Below are positions 15,228 to 27,259 of a stretch of DNA of 64,000 bases, one piece after another (position 1 is the stretch's first letter; each line of letters begins with the position of its first letter). This DNA comes from Pseudomonas sp. S35 (lineage in GTDB: Bacteria; Pseudomonadota; Gammaproteobacteria; Pseudomonadales; Pseudomonadaceae), in NCBI RefSeq assembly GCF_009866765.1, contig NZ_CP019431.1:2542001-2606000 (forward strand). Direction: 5' to 3'. Both the position numbers and the translations under genes were made by a program. The notes beneath the pieces are model-generated. The model worked only from the letters and a program-made list of their open reading frames with translations, was not told where the DNA came from and searched no databases.

Positions 15228-15240
15228 GTTGTCGTACAAC
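15228..15240. promoter_or_regulatory. Candidate GntR operator, site A
   Basis: GTTGT-CGT-ACAAC, a perfect palindrome around a 3-base centre, 50 bases before the GntR gene. It fits the FadR-subfamily operator pattern TNGTNNNACNA and the GTYRT-N3-AYRAC pattern shared with sites B-E, suggesting autoregulation. A separate 7-bp inverted repeat, GAATGCG/CGCATTC, follows at 15242-15263. Confidence 0.65.
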
Positions 15241-15290
15241 TGAATGCGCTATGATACGCATTCCCTTGCAAACCGAGATTTGTGTTCTTG

Positions 15291-16070
15291 ATGGACTACC
15301 CGAACGTCCAGCCCACCGTTCGCCGCCGGCACCGCAGCCTGGCCGAAGAACTGGTCACCGAGCTTTCCCGGCGCATTTGCACTGGGGAATTGGCGCGTGC
15401 CACCAAGCTGCCCACCGAATCCGAGGTGATGGCCGAGCACGGCGTCAGTCGCACGGTGGTGCGTGAGGCCATTTCGCGCCTGCAAGCCTCGGGCCTGGTG
15501 GAAACCCGGCACGGTGTCGGCACGTTTGTGAGGGATATTCCCAGCCCCAGCGGGTTTCGGATCGACCCCGACACCATCGTGACCTTGCAGGATGTGCTGG
15601 CGGTGCTGGAATTGCGCATCAGCCTGGAAGTAGAAGCTGCCGGCCTGGCCTGCCTGGGGCGCACCGACCAGCAATTGCAGGTGATGCGTGACTCGCTGGA
15701 TGCGCTCAACTCGCGGGCGGTGAGCGCCGATTATGCGGTGACGGCAGACTTTCAGTTTCACCAGCAGATCGCGCTGGCCACCGGCAATCGCTACTTCACC
15801 GACATCATGTTGCACCTGGGGGTCAACATCCTGCCGCGTACGCGCTTGCACTCAAAGCGCTTGGCCAACGCCAATAAAGAGCCTTACCTGGAGCGTTTGA
15901 GTCGCGAGCACGAGGACATCTACAAGGCCATTTTGCGCCGTGATGCCGACGCCGCACGGGCGGCGATGCGCCTGCACCTGTCTAACAGCCGCGAGCGTAT
16001 GCGCCGGGCCTATGAAGCGGCCGCCGCCGAATTGTCGAACGGCCCGGCTGCGGTGAACGCGCCGCCCTGA
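15291..16070 (+). CDS. GntR/FadR-family regulator of uronate catabolism
   Basis: 259-residue repressor. The N-terminal winged helix (about residues 10-75) contains LPTESEVMAEHGVSRTVVRE and HGVGTFV; the C-terminal FCD effector domain runs from about 95 to 240. The ATG at 15291 gives MDYPNVQPTV; an in-frame GTG at 15282 is possible. It is convergent with udh, and the two coding sequences overlap by 61 bp at their 3' ends. Sites resembling its own upstream palindrome lie before kdgM, the enolase gene and kdgD. Ligand (galacturonate, aldarate or keto-deoxy acid) unknown. Confidence 0.88.
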   Translation: MDYPNVQPTVRRRHRSLAEELVTELSRRICTGELARATKLPTESEVMAEHGVSRTVVREAISRLQASGLVETRHGVGTFVRDIPSPSGFRIDPDTIVTLQDVLAVLELRISLEVEAAGLACLGRTDQQLQVMRDSLDALNSRAVSADYAVTADFQFHQQIALATGNRYFTDIMLHLGVNILPRTRLHSKRLANANKEPYLERLSREHEDIYKAILRRDADAARAAMRLHLSNSRERMRRAYEAAAAELSNGPAAVNAPP

Positions 16071-16843
16071 AGCCGGCCACCGGGCTCATCCGCAGGCGGT
16101 TGCGGTTGCTGCTCGACCTTGGCGCGAAACTGCTCCGAGCTGTCCTGCGGTGCAAAGCCCAGGTGCTCGGCATGCCGATTGCTCCACCAGCGCTCCTTAT
16201 TGTCTGAAACGCCATACACCACACTGTGCCCCACGTCCTTGGCCAGCAGGGCGCGGGCCACCAGGTGGTCCAGGTCTGCGTAGCTCAGCCAGGTGTGCAG
16301 CATCCGCCGGTTGCGCGGTTCGGGGAACGACGAGCCGATGCGCAAGCTCACGGTTTCAATCCCATAGCGATGAAAATAGAACGCCGCGAGGTCTTCGCCG
16401 TAAGCCTTGGAGAGCGCGTAGTAACCATCCGGGCGGCGCTGTGCGTGCACATCCAGTTCCACGTCCTGGGGGTAAAAACCGGTGACGTGGTTGGAGCTGG
16501 CAAACACAATCCGCTTGACCCCTTGTTGCCGCGCCGCTTCGTAAATATGGAATGTGCCGCGAATATTGGCGTCGAGAATTTCCTCGAACGGCCGCTCCAC
16601 TGAAATCCCACCCAGGTGCACGATCGCGTCAACGCCGTCGACCAGCGCCGCCACGGCAGCCTTGTCGGCCAGGTTGCACTGGATCACTTCGTCGTGTGCA
16701 CCTGCGCTGGGCGCCATGGCGCTGATGTCCGAGGCACGCACGATGTCGGCATGGGCCTGCAAGGTTTCCCGCAGGATCTGCCCCAGGCCGCCGGCCGCGC
16801 CGGTGAGCAAAATGCGAGTGAAGGGTTTGGGCTGTGTGGTCAT
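16010..16843 (-). CDS. udh: Uronate dehydrogenase
   Basis: 277-residue short-chain dehydrogenase oxidising D-galacturonate or D-glucuronate with NAD+ to the aldaro-lactone. The Rossmann motif is TGAAGGLGQ near residue 13. The active-site YYALSKAYGE supplies Tyr and Lys, and SSFPEPRNRRMLHTWLS matches the characteristic substrate loop. The start at 16843 gives MTTQPKPFTRILLTGAAG; the upstream extension is not family-like. The last residues (after AAGPF, where known homologues stop) run into the 3' end of the GntR gene on the other strand. It follows the KdgM-type porin gene in the same direction. Confidence 0.92.
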   Translation of the reverse strand: MTTQPKPFTRILLTGAAGGLGQILRETLQAHADIVRASDISAMAPSAGAHDEVIQCNLADKAAVAALVDGVDAIVHLGGISVERPFEEILDANIRGTFHIYEAARQQGVKRIVFASSNHVTGFYPQDVELDVHAQRRPDGYYALSKAYGEDLAAFYFHRYGIETVSLRIGSSFPEPRNRRMLHTWLSYADLDHLVARALLAKDVGHSVVYGVSDNKERWWSNRHAEHLGFAPQDSSEQFRAKVEQQPQPPADEPGGRLQGGAFTAAGPFDNSAAAAS

Positions 16844-16930
16844 GGTCAGGTCTTCCATTGAGCGCTGGATGCAAAGGGTTTGCCTGGCGAGCGATGCGCG
16901 TTCGCCAGGCAAGTCGCAGGGAGGGGGGCG

Positions 16931-17656
16931 TTACATGAAGTTGTATTGGATGCCCAGGCGCCACCGCGCCTGACGGTCTTCTGTGGTGGAGTTGACCTTC
17001 ACATCACCAATCTCCATGAACGGGGCCCATTCCTTGGTGAGCTTGTATTTGACGATCAGGTTCTGTTCGTAGTCGCTCTTCTTGTTGTCGTAGCGGATGT
17101 AGTCGGTCTTGAAATAGATGAACTGATATTCGTACGCCCACTTACTGGCCGGCGTGTAGCCGAGCCAACCCTCGAAACGGTGGGTGGTCTGGTCATCCTT
17201 GATGTGGTCGGGCAAGTCCTCGTTGACCTGATCGCGGTCGAGCTTCTTGGTGTCCAGGCGATAGCGCGTGGCGGCGTAGAAGGCGTCGTTGATCTTGTAG
17301 TTGTACTTGAGGCCCAGCTTGTAGGTGGTCGAGTCTTTTGAACTGTCCATCTGGAACGCCGGGGTCAACGTCGATTGCGGGCTGAGCTTGTAGTTGTAGC
17401 TCACGGTGAACTCATGTCCGTTGTTGACCATGTTGTCGTAGGCCACGTCTTCACGGTCCCCGGCCGTGCGGTATTTCATTTCCGCTTCAAATCCCAGGCC
17501 ACTGTCCAGGCGGTAGTTGAGCTTGATTCGGTCAGCGTGGGCGCTGTCTTCCTCAGTGAACTGGTGGCGGTAGTTGATGCTGGCAGAGTCAGCGCTGACA
17601 TACAGCGGCAGGCCGAGGGTCAGGGCAGTAACGAGCGTGCGTAGGGTGGTGTTCAT
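16931..17656 (-). CDS. kdgM: KdgM-family oligogalacturonate porin
   Basis: 241 residues with a signal peptide cleaved near YVSADSASINY, then short amphipathic strands separated by charged turns and a C-terminal Phe-Met (IQYNFM). This is the pattern of the small 12-strand KdgM/NanC porins that admit acidic oligosaccharides. Arg and Lys are plentiful in strand segments, as expected for polygalacturonate fragments. The mRNA leader contains an A-rich run, and site B lies 94 bases upstream. Its place between uronate genes and opposite an ABC importer supports oligogalacturonide entry. Confidence 0.85.
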   Translation of the reverse strand: MNTTLRTLVTALTLGLPLYVSADSASINYRHQFTEEDSAHADRIKLNYRLDSGLGFEAEMKYRTAGDREDVAYDNMVNNGHEFTVSYNYKLSPQSTLTPAFQMDSSKDSTTYKLGLKYNYKINDAFYAATRYRLDTKKLDRDQVNEDLPDHIKDDQTTHRFEGWLGYTPASKWAYEYQFIYFKTDYIRYDNKKSDYEQNLIVKYKLTKEWAPFMEIGDVKVNSTTEDRQARWRLGIQYNFM

Positions 17657-17661
17657 ACGGT

Positions 17662-17682
17662 CTTCTTTTTTTTGTTTTTGTT
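17662..17682 (-). promoter_or_regulatory. Crc/Hfq CA-rich motif before kdgM
   Basis: On the minus strand this A-rich run contains AACAAAAA and AAAAAGAA, both fitting AANAANAA, immediately before the kdgM start codon. Hfq/Crc repression is inferred. Confidence 0.5.
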
Positions 17683-17750
17683 AGGGTCGTTTGACGGTTG
17701 CTACGGCGATGCGTTGTTGCGTGTGGCTCTCATCTAAGGTGCCGATATAC

Positions 17751-17763
17751 GTTATCGTACGAC
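17751..17763. promoter_or_regulatory. Candidate GntR operator, site B (kdgM)
   Basis: GTTAT-CGT-ACGAC fits GTYRT-N3-AYRAC. It lies 94 bases upstream of the kdgM start on the minus strand. Confidence 0.6.
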
Positions 17764-17941
17764 AAGATGACTCGTCTAGCGGTTATCGGTCGATTTGAAA
17801 CACTTTGAAACATATGTGCCATATGAATAGGGCTTTACAGCAATTGCTGTTATTCCTTGGTTGTCTTTAAAAATAAGGGTTTTACCGGGTTTGGCGGGAA
17901 ATGCATGGTGAAGCGGGGTGGGTTATTGGGTCTTTTCAAGT

Positions 17942-17954
17942 GTTGTACGATGAC
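17942..17954. promoter_or_regulatory. Candidate GntR operator, site C (enolase/ABC operon)
   Basis: GTTGT-ACG-ATGAC lies 63 bases upstream of the enolase-superfamily gene. The same 13 bases recur exactly at site D before kdgD, more than 8 kb away. Confidence 0.65.
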
Positions 17955-17995
17955 CTATGATCGGTCGCAACAGACGACATTCCTGTCTCAAATCC

Positions 17996-18003
17996 AATAA
18001 GAA
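17996..18003 (+). promoter_or_regulatory. Crc/Hfq CA motif before the enolase gene
   Basis: AATAAGAA fits AANAANAA and overlaps the AGAAGG ribosome site of the first gene of the uronate transport operon. Confidence 0.45.
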
Positions 18004-18017
18004 GGCTTAAGACGTCC

Positions 18018-19172
18018 ATGAGAATCACAGCAGTCAACGTCCAGGTGTTTTCCTACCCGACCCGCCGCGCAGTCGACAGCGCTGGCCATGCCCACCCCGG
18101 TGATGTCACCCAGGCGCAGATGGCTTTGCTGCGCATCCAGACTGAAGACGGCCAGGAGGGTTTCGCGTTCGGCGCCCCTGAATTGATCCGCCCGTATGTG
18201 TTGGATGGGTTCGTGCGCAAAGTGCTGGTGGGGCAGAACGCCTTTGATCGCGAAAAAATCTGGCAAGACCTCGCCCATTGGCAGCGTGGCAGTGCCAGCC
18301 AACTGACCGACCGTGCCTTGGCCCTGGTTGAGCAGGCGCTGTGGGATTGGGCGGGACGCAAACTCGGCGTGCCGGTGCACAAGTTGATCGGTGGTTTCCG
18401 CGACAAGGTGCCGGCCTACGGCTCGACCATGTGTGGCGACGAGCTGCCCGGCGGCCTCGCTACCCCCGAAGATTACGGGCGCTTCGCCGAGACCCTGGTG
18501 CAGCGCGGCTACAAGGCCATCAAGCTGCACACCTGGATGCCGCCGGTGTCGTTCGCCCCGAGCCCGCGCATCGACGTCAAAGCCTGCGCGGCCGTGCGTG
18601 AAGCGGTGGGGCCGGACATCGCACTGATGCTCGACGGTTACCACTGGTACAGCCGCACCGAGGCGCTGTACATCGGCCGCGAGCTGGAAAAACTCGACTT
18701 TGCCTGGTTTGAAGAGCCGATGATGGAAGAGTCCGCCGAGTCCTATGCCTGGCTCGCGGGGCAGCTGGATATTCCGGTGCTCGGCCCGGAAACCTTGTCC
18801 GGCAAACACCTGGCCCGCGCCAGTTGGGTCAAGCACGATGTGTGCGATATCTTGCGTGCCGGTGTCGCGGGCGTCGGCGGTATTGCGCCGTGCCTGAAAG
18901 TCGCCCACCTGGCCGAGTCGTTTGGCATGGATTGCGAAATCCACGGCAACGGCGCCGCCAACCTGGCGGTGGTCGGCGCGATCAAGAACTGCACGTGGTA
19001 TGAGCGCGGCCTGTTGCACCCGTACCTGGATTACGACGAAGTGCCGGCCTACCTCAACCGCCTGGTGGACCCGATGGACAACGATGGGTTTGTGCACCTG
19101 TCCGATTCGCCGGGCCTGGGCGAAGACATCAATTTCAATTACATCGAGACCAATACGCTTAAAAGCTTCTGA
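18018..19172 (+). CDS. Enolase-superfamily enzyme, candidate aldarolactone cycloisomerase or aldarate dehydratase
   Basis: 384 residues with an N-terminal capping domain and a (beta/alpha)7-beta barrel. Metal ligands are visible as Asp (LMLDGYHWY), Glu (WFEEPMM) and Glu (LGPETLSG). The second-strand Lys is in AIKLHTW, and a seventh-strand His is in CEIHGNGAAN. Where mandelate racemase relatives carry the dyad Asp after strand six, this protein reads RAGVAGVGGI, so that Asp appears to be Gly. It heads the operon with the ABC importer. Udh makes an aldarolactone and KdgD uses a keto-deoxy-aldarate; this enzyme is the only candidate in the window for the step between. The exact reaction is inferred. 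Confidence 0.75.
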   Translation: MRITAVNVQVFSYPTRRAVDSAGHAHPGDVTQAQMALLRIQTEDGQEGFAFGAPELIRPYVLDGFVRKVLVGQNAFDREKIWQDLAHWQRGSASQLTDRALALVEQALWDWAGRKLGVPVHKLIGGFRDKVPAYGSTMCGDELPGGLATPEDYGRFAETLVQRGYKAIKLHTWMPPVSFAPSPRIDVKACAAVREAVGPDIALMLDGYHWYSRTEALYIGRELEKLDFAWFEEPMMEESAESYAWLAGQLDIPVLGPETLSGKHLARASWVKHDVCDILRAGVAGVGGIAPCLKVAHLAESFGMDCEIHGNGAANLAVVGAIKNCTWYERGLLHPYLDYDEVPAYLNRLVDPMDNDGFVHLSDSPGLGEDINFNYIETNTLKSF

Positions 19173-19244
19173 CGTGTAAACGGTCAGCTCGGCATACGTT
19201 GAGCTGGCCGAGAGCCCTATAAATATAAAAAAGGCACTCTCGCT

Positions 19245-20855
19245 ATGAACATATTTCCTTCGCTGTGGGCGCGGGTATTCGTCGCCGCCCTGGCCGTCAC
19301 CGCCGTACCGGCAAGCTTTGCCAAAACCCCGGCCGATCAACTGATCGTCGGCATGAGCATGATCAACCTGCTGTCCCTCGACCCGGCGGCCGCCACCGGC
19401 CTGGACGTGTCGGAAATCAACGCCAACCTCTATGACATGTTGCTCGTGCAGGATGTCGCCCAGCCAGATCGCCTGGTACCTGCGCTGGCCGAGCGCTGGC
19501 AGGTCAGTGAGGACCGCAAGACCCTGACCTTCAACCTGCGCAGTGGGGTGAAGTTCCAGTCCGGCAATGACTTGAGCGCCGAAGACGTAGCCTGGTCGCT
19601 GCACCGGGTGCTCAAGCTCAACCTCGCGCTGGCCTCCACCTGGAAGGCCTACGGCTTCACTGCCGAAAACGTCGAGCGCTACATGCGCGCCACGGATGCC
19701 AACACGTTCGTGATCGAACTGCCACGGCCGACCGACCCGCTGTTGGTGCTCAACACCCTGGCGACCTCGCCGAGTGCGTTCATCCTCGACCGCAAAAAAG
19801 TCCTCGAACACCAGAAAGGCAGCGACATGGGCGCCGCCTGGCTGGTGACTCACGCGGCCGGCAGCGGCGCATTCGCGCTCAATGACTGGCGCGCCAACGA
19901 CGTGATCCTGATGACCCGTTTCGACGGTTACTGGGGTGGCCCGGCCAAACTCAAGCGCATCGTGATGCGCAACATGACCGAGTCGCAGTCGTTGCGCCTG
20001 ATGATCGAGCGCGGTGACCTGGATATCGCCAAAGGCATGTCCGCGCCGGACATCGAAGCCCTGCAGAAAAGCGACAAGGTGCGCACCCAGACCCTGCAAC
20101 GCGGCACCCTGTATTACGTGGCGCTGAGTGTGAAGCAACCGATGTTCGCCGATGCGCGGGTGCGCAAGGCCGTGCGGTCGCTGATCGATTACCAAGGCAT
20201 CAACCAGACGGTCATGCCCCATTACGGCGTGATCAACCAACGCCCGATGCCGTTGGGTCTGGCGGCGCGCCTGCCGGATCCGGGTTACACACTCAACGTC
20301 GAGCAAGCCAAGGTCTGGCTGGCTGAAGCGGGTTACCCGAATGGTTTCAAAACCACCATTCGTGTGCTGGCCGAACCGCCGTTCATCAACATTGCCTCCA
20401 ACCTGCAATCGACCCTGGCCCAGGCCGGCATCCAAGCCAGCATCATCACCGGCACCGGTAACCAGATCTACGGCGCGATGCGCGAGCGTACCTTCGACAT
20501 CATCGTCGGTCGCGGCGGTGGCGGGGCAGAGCGTCACCCCCATTCCAGCCTGCGCACCCTGGTGTACAACCCGGATAACCGCGACGAAGCCAAACTCACC
20601 AACTTCCAGGGCTGGCGCACCTCGTTCTACAGCCCTGAACTGAACCAGTTGATTGAGCATGCAGAAGTCGAACCGGATGCCGACAAACAACTGACGCAGT
20701 ACCGCGAGATCCAGGCGCAGGTCGATCAACAGGTCGGGGCTATTTTGCCGGTCTCGCAGATGACCGACACCGTGGTGGTGTACACCGACGTGGCCGACTT
20801 CCAGGGCCACACCGCTGCGACCACGCGCTACAAAGACGTCTACAAAAAGCGCTGA
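19245..20855 (+). CDS. ABC transporter periplasmic binding protein (family 5), copy 1
   Basis: 536 residues with a Sec signal peptide ending VPASFA-KTPADQL and no lipobox Cys, so it should be soluble in the periplasm. The body matches peptide/nickel-type family 5 binding proteins (GVKFQSGNDLSAEDVAWSLHR and MTRFDGYWGG). It is closely similar along its whole length to the second binding protein at 21960-23564. A hairpin-forming segment lies in the 72-bp gap after the enolase gene. Although the family is named for peptides, the setting points to galacturonate oligomers or related acids as ligand. Confidence 0.85.
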   Translation: MNIFPSLWARVFVAALAVTAVPASFAKTPADQLIVGMSMINLLSLDPAAATGLDVSEINANLYDMLLVQDVAQPDRLVPALAERWQVSEDRKTLTFNLRSGVKFQSGNDLSAEDVAWSLHRVLKLNLALASTWKAYGFTAENVERYMRATDANTFVIELPRPTDPLLVLNTLATSPSAFILDRKKVLEHQKGSDMGAAWLVTHAAGSGAFALNDWRANDVILMTRFDGYWGGPAKLKRIVMRNMTESQSLRLMIERGDLDIAKGMSAPDIEALQKSDKVRTQTLQRGTLYYVALSVKQPMFADARVRKAVRSLIDYQGINQTVMPHYGVINQRPMPLGLAARLPDPGYTLNVEQAKVWLAEAGYPNGFKTTIRVLAEPPFINIASNLQSTLAQAGIQASIITGTGNQIYGAMRERTFDIIVGRGGGGAERHPHSSLRTLVYNPDNRDEAKLTNFQGWRTSFYSPELNQLIEHAEVEPDADKQLTQYREIQAQVDQQVGAILPVSQMTDTVVVYTDVADFQGHTAATTRYKDVYKKR

Positions 20856-20876
20856 TCGATTTACCAGGAGCTCACT

Positions 20877-21914
20877 ATGTTTGTTATGACTGCCTCTGTC
20901 ATGGGCGCTCGCGCTTCCAATACCCTGCGGCGTGCCAGCACGGTGCTGGTGACGTTGCTCGGCCTGTTGGCGCTGACCTTTATCATCGGCCGGGTCATGC
21001 CGCTTGACCCCGTGCTGGCGGTAGTCGGGCCGGATGCCGACAGTTCCACCTACGACCAGGTGTACCGGTCGATGGGCCTGGACAAGCCGATCTGGACCCA
21101 ATTCGGCCTTTACCTCAACGACCTGCTCCACGGTGATTTCGGCAACGCGTTGCTGACCGGCCACCCGGTGCTCGATGACATCCTGCGGGTGTTCCCGGCG
21201 ACCATCGAGTTGGCGACGTTGGCGATCCTGTTCGGCGTGCTGATCGGTTTGCCGCTGGGCGTGTGTGCGGCCAGCAACCAAGGTCGGCTCGGCGACCACG
21301 TGGCACGGGTGATCACCCTGTTCGGCTACTCCACCCCGATTTTCTGGCTGGGCATGATGGGCCTGCTGGTGTTCTACGCCTGGCTCGGTTGGGCCGGTGG
21401 CGCGGGGCGCATCGACCTGGCCTACGACGGCATGGTGCCCGAGGTCACTGGCCTGTTGCTGATCGACACCTCGCTTGCCCGTGACTGGGACGCCTTCGCC
21501 AGCGCCCTGCGGCATATCGTGTTGCCGGCGCTGATCCTGGGCCTGAACTCGGTGGCGTACATCAGCCGCATGACCCGCAGCTTCATGCTGGAGCAGCTGT
21601 CCCAGGAATACATCATCACGGCGCGGGTCAAGGGTTTGTCCCGGCGCCAAGTGGTGTGGGGGCATGCGTTTCGCAACATCCTCGTGCAGTTGCTCACCGT
21701 GGTTGCGCTGGCCTACGGCTCGCTGCTCGAAGGTGCGGTGCTGATCGAAACCGTGTTCGCCTGGCCGGGGTTCGGCCAATACCTCACCAGCAGCCTGATG
21801 CTCGGTGACATGAATGCGGTGATGGGCTGCGTGCTGGTGATCGGCCTGATTTTCGTTGCGCTCAACCTGATCAGCGATGCCTTGTACAAGGTGTTCGATC
21901 CGCGCACCCGTTAA
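20877..21914 (+). CDS. ABC transporter permease, DppB type
   Basis: 345-residue inner-membrane protein with about six helices. The DppB-family signature appears as VRVKGLSRRQVVWGHAFRN-type coupling-loop residues (ITARVKGLSRRQVVWGHAFR), and the N-terminal helix reads TLLGLLALTFIIGRVMPLDP. It sits between the two paralogous binding-protein genes, 21 bp after the first. It pairs with the DppC-type permease at 23597-24514. The start at 20877 follows AGGAG; a second in-frame ATG three codons on is possible. Confidence 0.88.
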   Translation: MFVMTASVMGARASNTLRRASTVLVTLLGLLALTFIIGRVMPLDPVLAVVGPDADSSTYDQVYRSMGLDKPIWTQFGLYLNDLLHGDFGNALLTGHPVLDDILRVFPATIELATLAILFGVLIGLPLGVCAASNQGRLGDHVARVITLFGYSTPIFWLGMMGLLVFYAWLGWAGGAGRIDLAYDGMVPEVTGLLLIDTSLARDWDAFASALRHIVLPALILGLNSVAYISRMTRSFMLEQLSQEYIITARVKGLSRRQVVWGHAFRNILVQLLTVVALAYGSLLEGAVLIETVFAWPGFGQYLTSSLMLGDMNAVMGCVLVIGLIFVALNLISDALYKVFDPRTR

Positions 21915-21941
21915 TGCGCAGCGCAGTACCGATAAAACTAT

Positions 21942-21949
21942 AAGAAGAA
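21942..21949 (+). promoter_or_regulatory. Crc/Hfq CA motif before the second binding-protein gene
   Basis: AAGAAGAA fits AANAANAA exactly and overlaps the GAAGGA ribosome site, 10 bases before the start codon. Confidence 0.5.
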
Positions 21950-21959
21950 GGAATTTTTC

Positions 21960-23564
21960 ATGACATTTTCGAAACTGCACCTTGGCCTGCTGAGCGCTGT
22001 TCTCGCCCTCGGCCCGATGACCCTGGCCAACGCCAAGACCCCGGCTGATCAACTGATCGTCGGCATGAGCATGGTCAACCTGTTCTCCATAGACCCGGCC
22101 AATGCGCCCGGCCTGGATGCGTCCGGTGTCAACGCCAACCTTTACGACACCCTGATCAAGCGTGACCAGGGCAACCCGGAAAAACACCTGCCGCAACTGG
22201 CCGAACGCTGGGACATCAGCGAGGACGGCAAGCAGGTGACGTTCCATCTGCGCCAGGACGTGAAATTCCATTCGGGCAACCCGCTGACCGCCGAGGACGT
22301 GGCGTGGTCGCTGTACCGCGTGATGAAACTCAACTTCGGCCTGGCCACCACCTGGAAGGCTTATGGCTACAGCGTCGACAACATCCAGGCGCTGATCCGC
22401 GCCACCGACGCCCACACTTTGGTGGTCGATCTGCCGCAGACGATGGATCCCTTGCTGTTGGTGGACTCCCTGGCCATCTCGCCCAGCGCCGTGATCGTGG
22501 ACCGCAAGACCGCCTTGTCCCATGAAAAAAACGGCGACCTTGGCGCCGGTTGGCTGGTGACGAACGAGGCGGGCAGTGGCCCCTTCGTGCTGACCAAATG
22601 GAGTGCCAACGATTCACTGCTGCTGACCCGTTTCGACGGCTACTGGGGCGGCGCGGCCAAGCTCAAGCGCGTGGTGGTGCGGCACATGACCGAATCCCAG
22701 TCCCTGCGCCTGATGCTCGAACGCGGCGACCTCGACCTGGCCTACGGCATGGCCGCGCCGGACATTCGTGCCATCGACGGCTCGGACAAGATCCAGGTGC
22801 AGTCGCTGCCACGCGGCACCATGTACTACGTGGCCATGAGCATGAAGCAGCCGGAATTTGCCAAGCCCAAGGTGCGTGAAGCGGTGCGCAACCTGATCGA
22901 CTACAAAGGCCTGGACCAACAAGTGATGCCGTATTACGGCAAGCTCAACCAGCAGCCGATGCAGTTGGGCCTGGAGGCGCGCCTGCCGGATCCGGGCTAT
23001 CACATGGACGTGGCCAAGGCGAAAGCCCTGCTGGCGCAGGCGGGTTACCCCGAGGGGTTCAACACCACCATCCGCACGCTGTCGGAGCCGCCGTTCATTG
23101 ATATCGCCGCACGCCTGCAAGCGACCCTGGCCGAAGGCGGGATCAAGGCCAGCATTGTCACCGGCACCGGCAACCAGGTGTACGGCGCGATGCGTGCGCG
23201 CAATTTCGAGATCATCGTGGCCCGGGGCGCCGAGCGTTACCCGCACCCGTATTTCAGCCTGCGCACGTTCGCCTACAACCCCAACAACAGCGACGACGCC
23301 GGCCTGCCGAACTTCCAGGGCTGGCGCGCTTCGTTCTTCAGCCCACAGATCAACAGCCTGATCGACCAGGCCGGCGTGACGCGTGATTCGGCGCAGCGGG
23401 TCAGCCTGTACCACCAGGCACAGAACCTCTACGACCAGCAAGTGGGGCCGATCCTGATGATTTCGCAGATGACCGACACCGTGGTCAGCGCTGCCGATGT
23501 CAAGGGCTTCAGCGGTGACGATGCCGAGGCCACCCGTTACCTGGGTGTCTACAAGCAGCGTTGA
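21960..23564 (+). CDS. ABC transporter periplasmic binding protein (family 5), copy 2
   Basis: 534 residues, signal peptide ending LANAKTPADQ, no lipobox. It is a clear paralogue of the protein at 19245-20855: both share TPADQLIVGMSM, ADRWD/AERWQ-type segments and the LARLPDPGY-like region, and both end in a Lys/Gln-Arg tail after TRYxxVYK. Two binding proteins around one permease pair suggest ligands of different length or identity. It lies between the two permease genes, so duplication happened within the operon. Confidence 0.85.
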   Translation: MTFSKLHLGLLSAVLALGPMTLANAKTPADQLIVGMSMVNLFSIDPANAPGLDASGVNANLYDTLIKRDQGNPEKHLPQLAERWDISEDGKQVTFHLRQDVKFHSGNPLTAEDVAWSLYRVMKLNFGLATTWKAYGYSVDNIQALIRATDAHTLVVDLPQTMDPLLLVDSLAISPSAVIVDRKTALSHEKNGDLGAGWLVTNEAGSGPFVLTKWSANDSLLLTRFDGYWGGAAKLKRVVVRHMTESQSLRLMLERGDLDLAYGMAAPDIRAIDGSDKIQVQSLPRGTMYYVAMSMKQPEFAKPKVREAVRNLIDYKGLDQQVMPYYGKLNQQPMQLGLEARLPDPGYHMDVAKAKALLAQAGYPEGFNTTIRTLSEPPFIDIAARLQATLAEGGIKASIVTGTGNQVYGAMRARNFEIIVARGAERYPHPYFSLRTFAYNPNNSDDAGLPNFQGWRASFFSPQINSLIDQAGVTRDSAQRVSLYHQAQNLYDQQVGPILMISQMTDTVVSAADVKGFSGDDAEATRYLGVYKQR

Positions 23565-23596
23565 GTGCTTCCAGAATTCACACAGAGAAGATGCTT

Positions 23597-24514
23597 ATGA
23601 ATGCCAATCTGTCTTCCATCGAATCGGCGGCGAAACGCCCGGTGGATCGCTCGCCAGGCTCCAGCTTCGATGCTTTTTGCAAGAGTGGCCTGCGGGTGCT
23701 GCGCCACTTGCTGCGCAACCCCATGACCCTGGCAGGCCTGCTGGTGGCAATGCTGTTGGTGGTAGTCGCGGCCTTTGCGCCGTGGATCGCCACCCACGAC
23801 CCGGTCGCGCAGAACCTCGCCAACGCCTTGCAGGCGCCGGGCTCGGCGCATTGGTTCGGCACCGATGAATATGGCCGGGATATTTTCAGCCGGTTGGTCT
23901 ACGGCTCGCGAATCACGCTGTACATCATTGGCCTGGTGACGGTGATCGTGGGGCCTATCGGCCTGTTTATCGGCACCGTGTCGGGCTACTTCGGTGGTGC
24001 GGTCGACACCGTGTTCATGCGCTTGACCGATATCTTCATCTCCTTTCCCAGCCTGGTCCTCGCGCTGGCGTTTATCGCGGCCCTCGGCCCTGGCCTGGAG
24101 CACGCGGTGGTGGCGATTGCCTTGACCTCCTGGCCGCCGATTGCGCGGCTGGCGCGGGCTGAAACCCTGTCCTTGCGCAACGCCGATTTTGTCGTCGCGG
24201 TGGAGCTGCAAGGCGCGTCGCCCGCGCGGATTATCCTGCGCCATATCGTGCCGATGTGCCTGTCCTCGGTGATCATCCGCCTGACCATGAACATGGCGGG
24301 GATCATCCTGACCGCGGCGGCCCTGGGCTTTCTCGGCCTGGGCGCCCAGGCGCCGCTGCCGGAGTGGGGCGCGATGATTTCGACCGGTCGCCGCTACATG
24401 CTCGAATGCTGGTGGCTGGTGGCGGTTCCAGGGGCGGCGATCATGCTGGTCAGCCTGGCCTTCAACCTGCTGGGCGATGGCCTGCGGGATATTCTTGATC
24501 CGCGCAGCGAATAA
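23597..24514 (+). CDS. ABC transporter permease, DppC type
   Basis: 305-residue inner-membrane permease. A cytoplasmic N-terminus is followed by the first helix (NPMTLAGLLVAMLLVVVAAF) and the DppC hallmark HWFGTDEYGRDIFSRLVYG. The coupling loop reads VELQGASPARIILRHIVPM. The ATG at 23597 was chosen because AGAGAAG lies six bases upstream; the open frame back to 23561 overlaps the preceding gene. Partner of the DppB-type permease in the same operon. Confidence 0.88.
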   Translation: MNANLSSIESAAKRPVDRSPGSSFDAFCKSGLRVLRHLLRNPMTLAGLLVAMLLVVVAAFAPWIATHDPVAQNLANALQAPGSAHWFGTDEYGRDIFSRLVYGSRITLYIIGLVTVIVGPIGLFIGTVSGYFGGAVDTVFMRLTDIFISFPSLVLALAFIAALGPGLEHAVVAIALTSWPPIARLARAETLSLRNADFVVAVELQGASPARIILRHIVPMCLSSVIIRLTMNMAGIILTAAALGFLGLGAQAPLPEWGAMISTGRRYMLECWWLVAVPGAAIMLVSLAFNLLGDGLRDILDPRSE

Positions 24515-24528
24515 TCGGAGAACACCTT

Positions 24529-25368
24529 ATGTCCGCCATCAAACTGAATGTCGAAGGGCTTAACGTGCGCTTCGTCAGTGGCCAGAAAGAAACCCACGCC
24601 GTGCGCGACGTGTCCTTTACCTTGGGCCGGGAGAAGCTGGCGATCGTCGGTGAGTCCGGCTCCGGCAAATCCACCGTGGGCCGCAGCTTGCTAAAGCTGC
24701 ATCCGCCCAGCGCGAAAATCACCGCAAAGGCTATGGCGTTTGGTGAAGTCGACCTGTTGTCGGCCAGCGAAAAGGCCATGCAGAAGATTCGCGGCCAGCG
24801 CATCTCGATGATCATGCAAGACCCCAAATACTCGCTGAACCCGGTGGTCAAGGTCGGCGACCAGATCGCCGAAGCCTACCTGGCCCACCACAAGGCCAGC
24901 CGCAGCGATGCCCGCGAGCGCGTGTTGCAGATGCTGGAGCAGGTGCACATCCGCGACCCGCAGCGCGTCTACAACCTGTACCCCCATGAAGTCTCCGGCG
25001 GCATGGGGCAGCGCATCATGATCGCGATGATGGTGATCACCCGCCCTGAAGTGATCATCGCCGACGAGCCCACCTCGGCGCTGGATGTCTCGGTGCGCCA
25101 GCAAGTGCTCAACGTGCTGGAAGAGTTGGTGGACCAGCAGCAGATGGGGCTGATCTTTGTCAGTCACGACCTCAACCTGGTGCGCAACTACTGCGACCGC
25201 GTGCTGGTGATGTACGCCGGGCGTGTTGTCGAATCCCTGGCCGCCTGTGACCTGCACTACGCCGAGCACCCCTATACCCGTGGCCTGCTGGCCGCGTTGC
25301 CGAGCATGGATAACCGCCGTGCGCACCTGCCGGTGCTCAAGCGCGACCCCCTCTGGCTGACCCAATAA
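24529..25368 (+). CDS. ABC transporter ATPase, DppD type
   Basis: 279-residue ATP-binding subunit. Walker A is GESGSGKST near residue 40, the signature is VSGGMGQR (atypical Met in place of the usual Gln), Walker B is VIIADEPTSALD and the switch His is in VSHDLNL. It is shorter than usual DppD/OppD proteins (about 320-330), ending soon after LLAALPSMDNRRAHLP, so the usual C-terminal Cys-containing extension is absent. It is 14 bp from the permease gene and 11 bp from the next ATPase gene. Confidence 0.88.
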   Translation: MSAIKLNVEGLNVRFVSGQKETHAVRDVSFTLGREKLAIVGESGSGKSTVGRSLLKLHPPSAKITAKAMAFGEVDLLSASEKAMQKIRGQRISMIMQDPKYSLNPVVKVGDQIAEAYLAHHKASRSDARERVLQMLEQVHIRDPQRVYNLYPHEVSGGMGQRIMIAMMVITRPEVIIADEPTSALDVSVRQQVLNVLEELVDQQQMGLIFVSHDLNLVRNYCDRVLVMYAGRVVESLAACDLHYAEHPYTRGLLAALPSMDNRRAHLPVLKRDPLWLTQ

Positions 25369-25379
25369 GGAACCTGACC

Positions 25380-26156
25380 ATGCCCATGATCCAAGCGCAC
25401 GCCTTGAACCTGAGCTTCGGCACCGGTGCTGCCATCAACCAAGTGCTGCACGATGTGAGCCTGAGTGTCGCCGACGGCGAATCGTTCGGCCTGGTGGGGG
25501 AGTCCGGCTCGGGCAAGACCACCGTGCTGCGCTGCCTGGCCGGGCAATACCGGCATTGGAATGGCGAACTGAGCATTGCCGGCGCGCCGTTGCAGCACAA
25601 GATTCCCAAGGAACACTTTCGCAAGGTGCAGATGGTGTTCCAGGACCCCTACGGTTCCTTGCACCCTCGGCACACCATTGACACCGCCCTGCGCGAGCCG
25701 CTGATTATCCACGGGGTAGGGGACAAGGACGACCGTATTAACGAGATCCTGCTCAAGGTCGGCCTGAACGACAGTTTTCGCTTTCGCTACCCACACCAGT
25801 TGTCCGGCGGCCAGCGTCAGCGAGTGGCGATTGCGCGCGCCTTGATCCTGGAACCACGGGTGCTGCTGCTGGATGAGCCGACGTCGGCGCTGGATGTCTC
25901 GGTCCAGGCCGAGATCCTCAACCTGCTGGCGGACCTGCGTCAGCGCGAGAAACTCACCTACCTGCTGGTTACCCATGACCTGGGTGTGGTGACTCACTTG
26001 TGCGACCGGGTGGCGGTGATGCAGCACGGCAAGATCGTTGAGTTGCTTGACTGTCATGCCCTGAGCCAGGACCAGGCGGCGCACGACTACACGCGCATGT
26101 TGGTGCAGGCCAGCCGTGACTTCAGTCAGGAGTCTGAGCGGCGCCGTGTTGGCTAA
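25380..26156 (+). CDS. ABC transporter ATPase, DppF type
   Basis: 258-residue ATP-binding subunit. Walker A is GESGSGKTT, the Q-loop is MVFQDPYGSLHP, the signature is LSGGQRQRVAIARAL, Walker B is VLLLDEPTSALD and the H-loop is VTHDLG. Like its partner it lacks the long C-terminal extension of typical OppF proteins. It is the last gene of the operon, followed at once by a strong hairpin with U-tract. Confidence 0.88.
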   Translation: MPMIQAHALNLSFGTGAAINQVLHDVSLSVADGESFGLVGESGSGKTTVLRCLAGQYRHWNGELSIAGAPLQHKIPKEHFRKVQMVFQDPYGSLHPRHTIDTALREPLIIHGVGDKDDRINEILLKVGLNDSFRFRYPHQLSGGQRQRVAIARALILEPRVLLLDEPTSALDVSVQAEILNLLADLRQREKLTYLLVTHDLGVVTHLCDRVAVMQHGKIVELLDCHALSQDQAAHDYTRMLVQASRDFSQESERRRVG

Positions 26157-26157
26157 A

Positions 26158-26186
26158 AAAACATAGTCATCGTATGACTATGTTTT
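26158..26186 (+). terminator. Rho-independent terminator of the ABC operon, containing operator-like site E
   Basis: Perfect 13-bp stem AAAACATAGTCAT / ATGACTATGTTTT with a CGT loop, starting two bases after the last ATPase codon and ending in T residues. It can work in both directions. Its centre, 26166-26178, reads GTCAT-CGT-ATGAC and fits the same GTYRT-N3-AYRAC pattern as the four promoter sites. Confidence 0.75.
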
Positions 26187-26286
26187 GATTTATTTATTGT
26201 TTGTTGTGATAAAGCGCCTATTTCATTGGGTTTATATCCATTTTCACCATGAAGGGCGTTTAGAGGTTGGCATTAATATTTTTATA

Positions 26287-26299
26287 GTTGTACGATGAC
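26287..26299. promoter_or_regulatory. Candidate GntR operator, site D (kdgD)
   Basis: GTTGT-ACG-ATGAC, identical to site C, lies 48 bases upstream of kdgD. Confidence 0.65.
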
Positions 26300-26347
26300 G
26301 TACCTCTTAAGGTATTCCATTCATTTTTCGATTTGAGGTTTGCGAAC

Positions 26348-27259
26348 ATGACGCCACAAGAACTAAAAACAGTCCTGTCTTCCGGCTTGCTCTCGTTTCC
26401 GGTCACCGACTTTGATGCCGCCGGCGACTTCCGCGCCGACACCTACGCACGCCGCCTCGAATGGCTGGCGCCTTATGGCGCCAGTGCGTTGTTCGCAGCG
26501 GGCGGCACGGGGGAGTTCTTCTCCCTGGAGTCCAAGGAGTACACGCAGATCATCAAGACTGCCGTGGACACCTGCAAAGGCCAGGTGCCGATCCTCGCCG
26601 GTGCCGGTGGCCCAACACGCCAAGCTATTGCGTATGCCCAAGAAGCCGAGCGCCTGGGCGCTGCGGGTATTTTGCTGATGCCCCATTACCTCACCGAAGC
26701 CAGCCAGAAGGGCTTGGTGGCGCACGTTGAGCAAGTGTGCAACTCGGTGGATTTCGGCGTGGTGGTGTACAACCGCAACCTCTGCCGCCTCAACGCCGAC
26801 AGCCTGGAACAGCTGGCCGAGCGCTGCCCGAACCTGATCGGCTTCAAAGACGGCATTGGTGAGGTCGAATCCATGGTCAGCATCCGCCGTCGCCTGGGCG
26901 ACCGCCTGACTTACCTCGGCGGCCTGCCGACTGCCGAAGTCTATGCCGCCGCCTACAAGGCCCTTGGCGTGCCGGTGTACTCCTCGGCGGTGTTCAACTT
27001 CATCCCGAAAACCGCGATGGACTTCTACCGCGCCGTGGCTGCCGACGATCACGCGACGGTGGGCCGTTTGATCGACGATTTCTTCCTGCCGTACCTGGCG
27101 ATTCGTAACCGTTGTGAAGGTTATGGCGTGAGCATCGTCAAAGCCGGCGCACGCCTGGTGGGCCATGACGCAGGCCCGGTACGTGCACCACTGACCGATC
27201 TGTTGCCCGATGAAGTGGAGCAACTGGCGGTGCTGATCAAGTCCCTCGGCGCTCAATAA
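26348..27259 (+). CDS. kdgD: 5-dehydro-4-deoxyglucarate dehydratase
   Basis: 303-residue dihydrodipicolinate-synthase-fold enzyme that dehydrates and decarboxylates 5-keto-4-deoxy-glucarate to 2-oxoglutarate semialdehyde. The Schiff-base Lys is in [10 protein letters not shown], the conserved Tyr in GVVVYNRN and the substrate loop in [11 protein letters not shown]. The start at 26348 ([10 protein letters not shown]) has GAGG upstream; the frame open from 26288 would begin inside operator site D. It completes the oxidative uronate route. The semialdehyde dehydrogenase for the last step is not in this cluster. Confidence 0.93.

What the first reader, a model, noticed from the sequence alone, without database searches (positions are those of the whole stretch)
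15228..26299. Five-site palindrome GTYRT-N3-AYRAC defines a uronate/pectin regulon
Seen: 13-bp sites at 15228 (GTTGT CGT ACAAC), 17751 (GTTAT CGT ACGAC), 17942 and 26287 (both GTTGT ACG ATGAC) and 26166 (GTCAT CGT ATGAC). Four lie 48-94 bases before the GntR gene, kdgM, the enolase/ABC operon and kdgD. Known: FadR-type GntR proteins bind TNGTNNNACNA-like palindromes. Inference: the GntR protein at 15291 controls itself and all three transport/catabolic units.
Basis: partly seen in the sequence, partly recalled or inferred. Interest (0 to 1): 0.7.

Follow-up and report, generated by a model that had tools for sequence, protein, structure and literature searches.

The report
GguR-type operator network for pectin use
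The repeated 13-base palindrome is a real control site, of an already described kind, by which this Pseudomonas probably switches on its genes for breaking down pectin and using the uronic acids it releases; two sister regulators, not one, probably share the site.

Summary
In detail: all five sites are at the stated places, four of them 48-94 bp before gguR, kdgM, the enolase/ABC operon and kdgD, against 0.58 expected in the window. As written the pattern is too loose: 69 sites in the 6.61 Mb genome, about chance. All five have an ACG/CGT centre; GTYRTACGAYRAC gives 16 sites, 15 of 16 intergenic, against 2 of 14 loose-only sites checked. Nine of the eleven outside the window front kdgD2, pectate lyase, an OprD-udh2-lactonase-TRAP locus, a propeller lactonase, two permeases and a DUF4440 gene. 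Relatives keep the sites. Of 40 genus members, the motif is absent from exactly the 5 lacking a relative of the regulator. The half-sites match the published Polaromonas GguR site, so the operator kind is known. The inference needs correcting: a 68% paralog (B) is genus-wide and accompanies the motif in 6 genomes where it is the only relative found, so the window's protein (A) is probably not the sole regulator, and the regulon exceeds three units. I found no held paper linking GguR to pectate lyase; the defining paper was not readable.

The parts
15228..15240 (.). operator 1, GTTGTCGTACAAC, 50 bp before gguR-A
   Evidence: in an alignment of 34 sequences 12 of 13 positions are invariant and the one change (T to C in L074) stays within the consensus; a -10-like TATGAT or near variant follows after 9 bp in most rows
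15291..16070 (+). gguR-A: GntR/FadR-type regulator with FCD domain
   Evidence: below the NCBIfam cut-offs of ExuR, UxuR, LldR, NanR, PdhR
16010..16843 (-). udh: uronate dehydrogenase-like SDR, downstream of kdgM; its 3' end overlaps the 3' end of gguR (convergent)
   Evidence: family only (PF01370), the name uronate dehydrogenase rests on context and recall
16931..17656 (-). kdgM: oligogalacturonate porin
   Evidence: PF06178 2.8e-47
17751..17763 (.). operator 2, GTTATCGTACGAC, 94 bp before kdgM
   Evidence: 30 of 30 loci with kdgM
17942..17954 (.). operator 3, GTTGTACGATGAC, 63 bp before the enolase; between the hexamers of a promoter-like match (17933-17961)
18018..19172 (+). enolase-superfamily enzyme, probably an acid-sugar dehydratase, nearest to 1rvk/4hcd/4mmw (612 bits), far from 4ggb (111 bits)
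   Evidence: that these are Agrobacterium proteins and 4ggb is Gci is recalled
19245..26156 (+). dipeptide-type ABC importer: two solute-binding proteins (19245, 21960; 61% identical), two permeases (20877, about 23591), two ATPases (24529, 25380)
   Evidence: second permease and second ATPase read from the ORF list only
26166..26178 (.). operator 4, GTCATCGTATGAC, 9 bp after the stop of the last ABC gene, 121 bp (start to start) before operator 5; centre of a perfect inverted repeat with 13-bp arms, 26158-26186
   Evidence: kept in 11 of 11 sequences while the longer hairpin is not
26287..26299 (.). operator 5, GTTGTACGATGAC, 48 bp before kdgD
   Evidence: 11 of 11 sequences
26301..26314 (.). 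second palindrome TACCTCTTAAGGTA next to operator 5; the only TACCT-N4-AGGTA in the genome
   Evidence: function unknown
26348..27259 (+). kdgD: 5-dehydro-4-deoxyglucarate dehydratase
   Evidence: TIGR03249 441.7 bits over cut-off 373.95

Best explanation
The sites are operators of GguR-type regulators (GntR superfamily, FadR/FCD group), consensus GTYRT-ACG-AYRAC read on either strand. A dimer binds each palindrome next to or over the promoter and probably blocks transcription until a uronate- or aldarate-derived acid occupies the FCD pocket; the cell then makes the exoenzyme, porins, uptake systems and oxidative pathway (uronate -> aldarolactone -> aldarate -> keto-deoxy-aldarate -> 2-ketoglutarate semialdehyde -> 2-ketoglutarate) together. 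In this genome two close paralogs, A (15291, tied to the pectin cluster) and B (1.12 Mb, genus-wide), probably read the same operator. Shown here: site positions, conservation, genome distribution, match to a published GguR site. Inferred: that A and B bind, repression, the inducer, sharing between A and B.
For: Five sites, 0.58 expected. 16 strict sites in the genome: 15 of 16 intergenic, against 2 of the 14 loose-only sites examined (of 53 loose-only in the genome). Site upstream of gguR in 33 of 33 gammaproteobacterial loci amid diverged flanks. Distal targets keep it within 200 bp (own genome counted): pel 14 of 14 rows (13 genomes, since L139 and L065 are the same genome), MFS permease 5 of 5, DUF4440 19 of 21 exact (the other 2 with two mismatches), propeller lactonase 4 of 12 exact plus 4 with one mismatch. 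The motif is absent from the 5 of 40 genomes without a regulator relative and present in all 35 others. The GguR site of Polaromonas JS666 printed in PMC8376909 contains GTCAT-CAG-ACAAC, which fits GTYRT-N3-AYRAC. The stretch SRTVVREAxSxLQA, which I take as the recognition helix, is the same in A, B and C apart from two positions; positions fixed differently in A and B (85% or more each) are 3 in the winged-helix stretch and 12 in FCD, none in that helix.
Against: No binding, expression or inducer data. Repressor rather than activator is only inferred from operator/promoter overlap, and promoter-like matches in the region (6) hardly exceed shuffles (3.8). The backwards control of the strict pattern gives 10 hits in this genome. 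The 40 genomes are related, so the 35/5 split is fewer than 40 independent events. Two of 16 strict sites have no sensible target: L036 (intergenic, beside two genes with no uronate link) and L039 (inside an ORF). Betaproteobacterial relatives (L081-L091) carry the strict motif in only 1 of 11 loci, and their loose matches are not enriched over altered patterns. Four of 12 lactonase orthologs have no site within one mismatch.
Confidence: 0.85

Rival explanations
1. The operators in the window are read mainly by paralog B (1.12 Mb), and A is itself a target with another role (for example another inducer or other sites).
For: B-type (61-71% to the window protein) is in 35 of 40 genomes, A-type (87% or more) in 3; 6 genomes with a B-type as the only match at E<=1e-40 (G002, G012, G013, G015, G027, G030) have 2-5 strict sites each. 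Two of these (G013, G027) have one site about 50 bp upstream of B and one just downstream of B (coordinates; the downstream gene was not checked there).
Against: A travels with the pectin cluster and its sites, and the DNA-reading residues of A and B are the same, so A should bind too.
Confidence: 0.25
2. Site 26166 is not an operator but part of a terminator hairpin of the ABC operon (AAAACATAGTCAT-CGT-ATGACTATGTTTT followed by a T-rich tail).
For: 13 perfect pairs, reported as terminator-like; RNA fold z = -2.5.
Against: In 10 relatives the operator consensus is kept 10 of 10, while the perfect arm falls to 1 pair in four of them and to 5-9 pairs in the other six. A perfect operator forms a short hairpin anyway, and only 3 of the 13 pairs are G-C.
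Confidence: 0.12
3. The sites belong to another FadR-type regulator (lactate, pyruvate or glycolate type) whose loosely similar motif turns up here.
For: FadR-type operators share a GT-N-AC core (recalled).
Against: Targets with a readable function are mostly uronate/pectin genes, and presence tracks the GguR relatives across 40 genomes.
Confidence: 0.03

Closest known systems
GguR regulons of Proteobacteria (Bouvier et al. 2019, J Bacteriol, not readable here; site printed in PMC8376909, Halomonas case in PMC5507952, passages seen)
   Same: GntR-family regulator; half-sites GTYRT/AYRAC; uronate dehydrogenase and uronate/aldarate catabolic and uptake genes nearby
   Different: Centre ACG/CGT instead of CAG; pectate lyase, KdgM porin, a dipeptide-type ABC importer, a DUF4440 gene and, in two relatives, type II secretion genes carry the site; two close paralogs in one genome. 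Whether the 2019 paper already lists any of these for Pseudomonas I could not see.
KdgR regulon of soft-rot enterobacteria (recalled; Dickeya, Pectobacterium)
   Same: One regulator coordinates pectate lyase, porin KdgM, uptake, catabolism and, there, secretion
   Different: KdgR is of the IclR family with another operator (recalled); the protein here is GntR+FCD
ExuR/UxuR of E. coli
   Same: GntR-type regulators of hexuronate genes
   Different: The window protein scores 80.9 against 396 (ExuR) and 70.6 against 442 (UxuR) required; here the genes suit the oxidative pathway, not the isomerase one

Membership tests
GguR regulators | GntR winged helix plus FCD effector domain | tested here: met
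   PF00392 8.1e-20 and PF07729 1.3e-24
GguR regulators | Operator like the published Polaromonas GguR site | tested here: met
   the printed site contains GTCAT-CAG-ACAAC, fits GTYRT-N3-AYRAC; the centre differs
GguR regulators | Own gene and uronate/aldarate genes carry the operator | tested here: met
GguR regulators | Sequence orthology to the characterised Polaromonas protein | tested here: inconclusive
   that protein was not at hand; eleven betaproteobacterial relatives are 52-54% identical and the six placed in the tree fall outside the A+B group (midpoint root)
GguR regulators | Binding in vitro and release by a sugar-acid ligand | not testable with these tools
   needs purified protein
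KdgR (IclR family) | IclR domains | tested here: not met
   only GntR and FCD domains found
ExuR / UxuR | NCBIfam equivalog score above cut-off | tested here: not met
   80.9 of 396 and 70.6 of 442
LldR | NCBIfam equivalog score above cut-off | tested here: not met
   103.8 of 311

The most novel reading that the evidence does not exclude
In pectin-degrading pseudomonads a GguR duplication (A, linked to the pectin cluster, beside the genus-wide B) has taken over the job that KdgR does in soft-rot enterobacteria: one shared operator, read by two sister regulators probably tuned to different acids, ties pectate lyase, in some species the type II secretion genes, porins, chemoreceptors and a secreted NTF2-fold (DUF4440) protein of unknown function to uronate catabolism.
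Probability: 0.5. Interest if true: 0.5.

Novelty: new member of a known kind. Interest (0 to 1): 0.38.

Why it matters
It gives a precise, testable operator for pectin and uronate use in plant-associated Pseudomonas, extends it to unlinked genes including a pectate lyase, and points to a widespread gene of unknown function (DUF4440, 21 of 40 genomes) as a likely part of sugar-acid metabolism. The two-paralog, one-operator arrangement makes it possible to ask how a duplicated regulator divides inducers without dividing sites.

Tried and rejected
Loose pattern as the definition: rejected, it is at chance genome-wide and 12 of 14 loose-only sites examined lie inside ORFs.

Terminator reading of 26166: tested with relatives and judged secondary.

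Type II secretion genes as members in this genome: the gspG/gspI intergenic region of the window's genome has no site within two mismatches, although G011 and G019 have an exact one there.

Relaxed motif in betaproteobacterial loci: 4 matches against 2, 7 and 3 for three altered patterns, no enrichment.

First regulator tree with distant outgroups was poorly resolved; repeated without them (A and B each one side of a branch, supports 90/57 and 75/73, modest).

Mismatch counts are wrong by a coding slip (degenerate bases counted as mismatches, an offset of 4; lists empty for the same reason); one search replaces them.

Not independent rows: G011 is the genome of L065 (20 of 20 chunks of L139 found in L065), so the pel count of 14 rows stands for 13 genomes, and the A set holds that genome twice.

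The paper that defines GguR (10.1128/JB.00431-18, PMC6304669) is not held; I know it only from citations in PMC8376909, PMC6353982 and PMC9007349 (passages). PMC5507952: passages only. All other papers: search listings only. That no held paper links GguR to pectate lyase rests (of its 14 papers with GguR, UxuF, UxuL or PSPTO_1052, by title and known passages only PMC5507952 and PMC8376909 concern the regulator) and on a term search in those two, 'pectate' 0 times in each, besides. The library lacks most subscription journals, so this is weak. GguR with type II secretion or DUF4440 was not searched as such.
Full report
What is there. The window belongs to a 6,611,402-base single-contig genome of a Pseudomonas: loci with 95-99% regulator identity carry titles such as P. 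cyclaminis, P. sivasensis, P. grimontii and P. marginalis. The pattern GTYRTNNNAYRAC occurs five times in the window, at the five given places, against 0.58 expected. Reading the sequence gives 50, 94, 63 and 48 bp between sites and the ATG codons of gguR, kdgM, the enolase and kdgD. The gene reading is: GntR+FCD regulator, SDR (read as uronate dehydrogenase), KdgM porin, enolase-superfamily enzyme, a dipeptide-type ABC importer with two binding proteins (61% identical to each other), kdgD, a small CHMI-like protein and a GH28 protein with an fn3 domain.

The pattern is too loose as written. The genome holds 69 matches, about what scaling the window's expectation gives (60). All five window sites have ACG or CGT in the centre. 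With that centre there are 16 in the genome, five in the window; the tool's backwards control gives 10, so the number alone proves little. Fifteen of the 16 strict sites are intergenic; of the 14 loose-only sites that I had as loci (of 53), 2 are (Fisher p about 2e-5; ORFs by my own codon-score caller, first used).

The other eleven strict sites. Gene calls and families give: kdgD2 (77% to kdgD) with an aldehyde dehydrogenase and an MFS sugar-acid permease (site 1123089, 65 bp before kdgD2); pectate lyase (3389043, 134 bp); an EamA permease and an MFS (3478829); an MFS permease (3517047); a DUF4440 protein with a signal-like N-terminus (3539564); two sites before an OprD porin and one before a second udh (68% to the first), followed by an SMP-30 lactonase and a TRAP importer (4135184, 4135242, 4136762); and a seven-bladed lactonase (4456993). 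Two are doubtful: 3848345, intergenic beside two genes without a uronate link, and 5419517, inside an ORF.

Conservation. Of 47 loci from named genomes, 33 (L049-L080 and L092; 30 titled Pseudomonas, 2 Stutzerimonas, 1 'gamma proteobacterium L18') have a regulator at 68% identity or more, and all 33 have a strict site upstream of it; 30 of 30 with kdgM have the kdgM and enolase sites. One of 11 betaproteobacterial loci (Massilia terrae) has strict sites, before the regulator and before kdgD. In an alignment of 34 upstream regions the operator and a -10-like hexamer 9 bp downstream stand out from diverged flanks. In 11 ATP2-kdgD intergenic regions both operators match the consensus 11 of 11. 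In ten loci (L057-L066) the pectate lyase gene lies divergent from gguR and shares its site. For distal targets within 200 bp, own genome included: pel 14 of 14 rows (13 genomes), MFS permease 5 of 5, DUF4440 19 of 21 exact and 2 with two mismatches, lactonase 4 of 12 exact, 4 with one, 3 with two and 1 with four. Control chunks of 200 bp from the same loci mostly need 3-5 mismatches; the 20 exact matches among the pel control chunks fit the kdgM and enolase operators of the ten gguR loci.

Presence of regulator and motif. In 40 genus members 35 have a relative of the window protein at E <= 1e-40, and exactly the other five (G003, G007, G014, G032, G037; about 25.7 Mb) have no strict site, while all 35 have at least one. 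The genomes are not independent, so the combinatorial figure of 1.5e-6 overstates the strength.

Two regulators, one operator. The genome has relatives at 68% (B, 1120586, near kdgD2) and 51% (C, 4461531, divergent from an MFS-like gene and an enolase-family gene that I read as gudD). Proteins at 61-71% (B type by identity; 14 of them also placed by tree) are in 35 of 40 genomes, the window type (87% or more) in 3. Six genomes with only one match, of B type, have 2-5 strict sites. B's own upstream region here has a one-mismatch site, GTGATCGTACAAC, 49 bp before its start. Of positions fixed differently in 34 A and 28 B sequences, 3 lie in the winged-helix stretch and 12 in FCD, none in what I take as the recognition helix, so I expect a shared operator and perhaps different ligands. 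A and B are separate groups with modest support.

Wider regulon in relatives. I fetched 60 stretches holding 70 distinct strict sites in 12 genomes and classed the nearest genes. I did not tally every class. Recurrent targets besides those above: chemoreceptors (6 sites in 5 promoter regions of 4 genomes; L212, L215, L216 and L227 confirmed by Pfam, L228 by its N-terminus only; at L215 an MFS gene is nearer), an AraC-type regulator (3 sites in 3 genomes; L175 and L224 confirmed by Pfam, L191 by its N-terminus), the EamA permease (3 genomes), and the divergent gspG/gspI pseudopilin genes of a type II secretion cluster in G011 and G019 (Pfam T2SSG and T2SSI, tested on G019); in G019 the order is gsp genes - pel - gguR. 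That secretion site is absent from the window's genome. Some sites face genes with no clear link, for example a malate:quinone oxidoreductase in G023, and one site in G023 lies inside an ORF (L189).

What it is. The site printed for GguR of Polaromonas JS666 contains GTCAT-CAG-ACAAC (PMC8376909, passage), the same half-sites. PMC5507952 describes GguR with Udh and aldarate genes in Halomonas (passages). The lactonases UxuL and UxuF are credited to the same Bouvier et al. paper in PMC6353982 (passage). So this is the operator of a known regulator group, with another centre.

Mechanism. Operator 1 ends 9 bp before a conserved -10-like hexamer and thus covers the -35 place; operator 3 lies between the hexamers of a promoter-like match; operator 5 overlaps promoter-like matches (such matches are hardly above shuffles, 6 against 3.8). 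Overlap of this sort suits repression, released when a uronate-derived acid binds FCD. This is inference (about three in four); the ligand is unknown.

Verdict. The regulon idea is right in kind, too narrow in extent, and too sure that the neighbour is the sole regulator.

Noticed in passing
window 16010-16070: udh and gguR converge and overlap by 61 bp at their 3' ends; in many relatives (L057-L065, L069, L075-L078, L092) an SMP-30 lactonase gene stands between them, so it may have been lost here.
   Followed up: partly
window 26301-26314: A second palindrome, TACCTCTTAAGGTA, beside operator 5: its TACCT-N4-AGGTA form is kept in 11 of 11 sequences and occurs once in the genome; role unknown.
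   Followed up: partly
window 26158-26186: Operator 4 is the centre of a perfect inverted repeat with 13-bp arms, in this strain only among 11 compared.
   Followed up: yes
window 19245-20855 and 21960-23564: Two solute-binding protein genes in one ABC operon, on either side of the first permease gene, 61% identical.
   Followed up: partly
L229 and L230: Type II secretion gene cluster next to pel in both genomes; in G019 it is joined to the gguR cluster and carries the operator, here it lies about 0.8 Mb from the window without it.
   Followed up: partly
L035:4056-4481: DUF4440 (NTF2-like) protein with a signal-like N-terminus, in 21 of 40 genomes, 19 of 21 with an exact operator; nearest solved chain 3fsd, E 3.6e-4.
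   Followed up: partly
window 18018-19172: The enolase-superfamily enzyme is close to 1rvk/4hcd/4mmw and far from 4ggb (Gci, recalled), so the pathway may pass through free galactarate rather than the cycloisomerase short cut.
   Followed up: partly
L096:3236-3646: Intergenic region of paralog C has only weak similarity to the operator (CTTGTATGACAAC, two mismatches); C may read a shifted motif.
   Followed up: no
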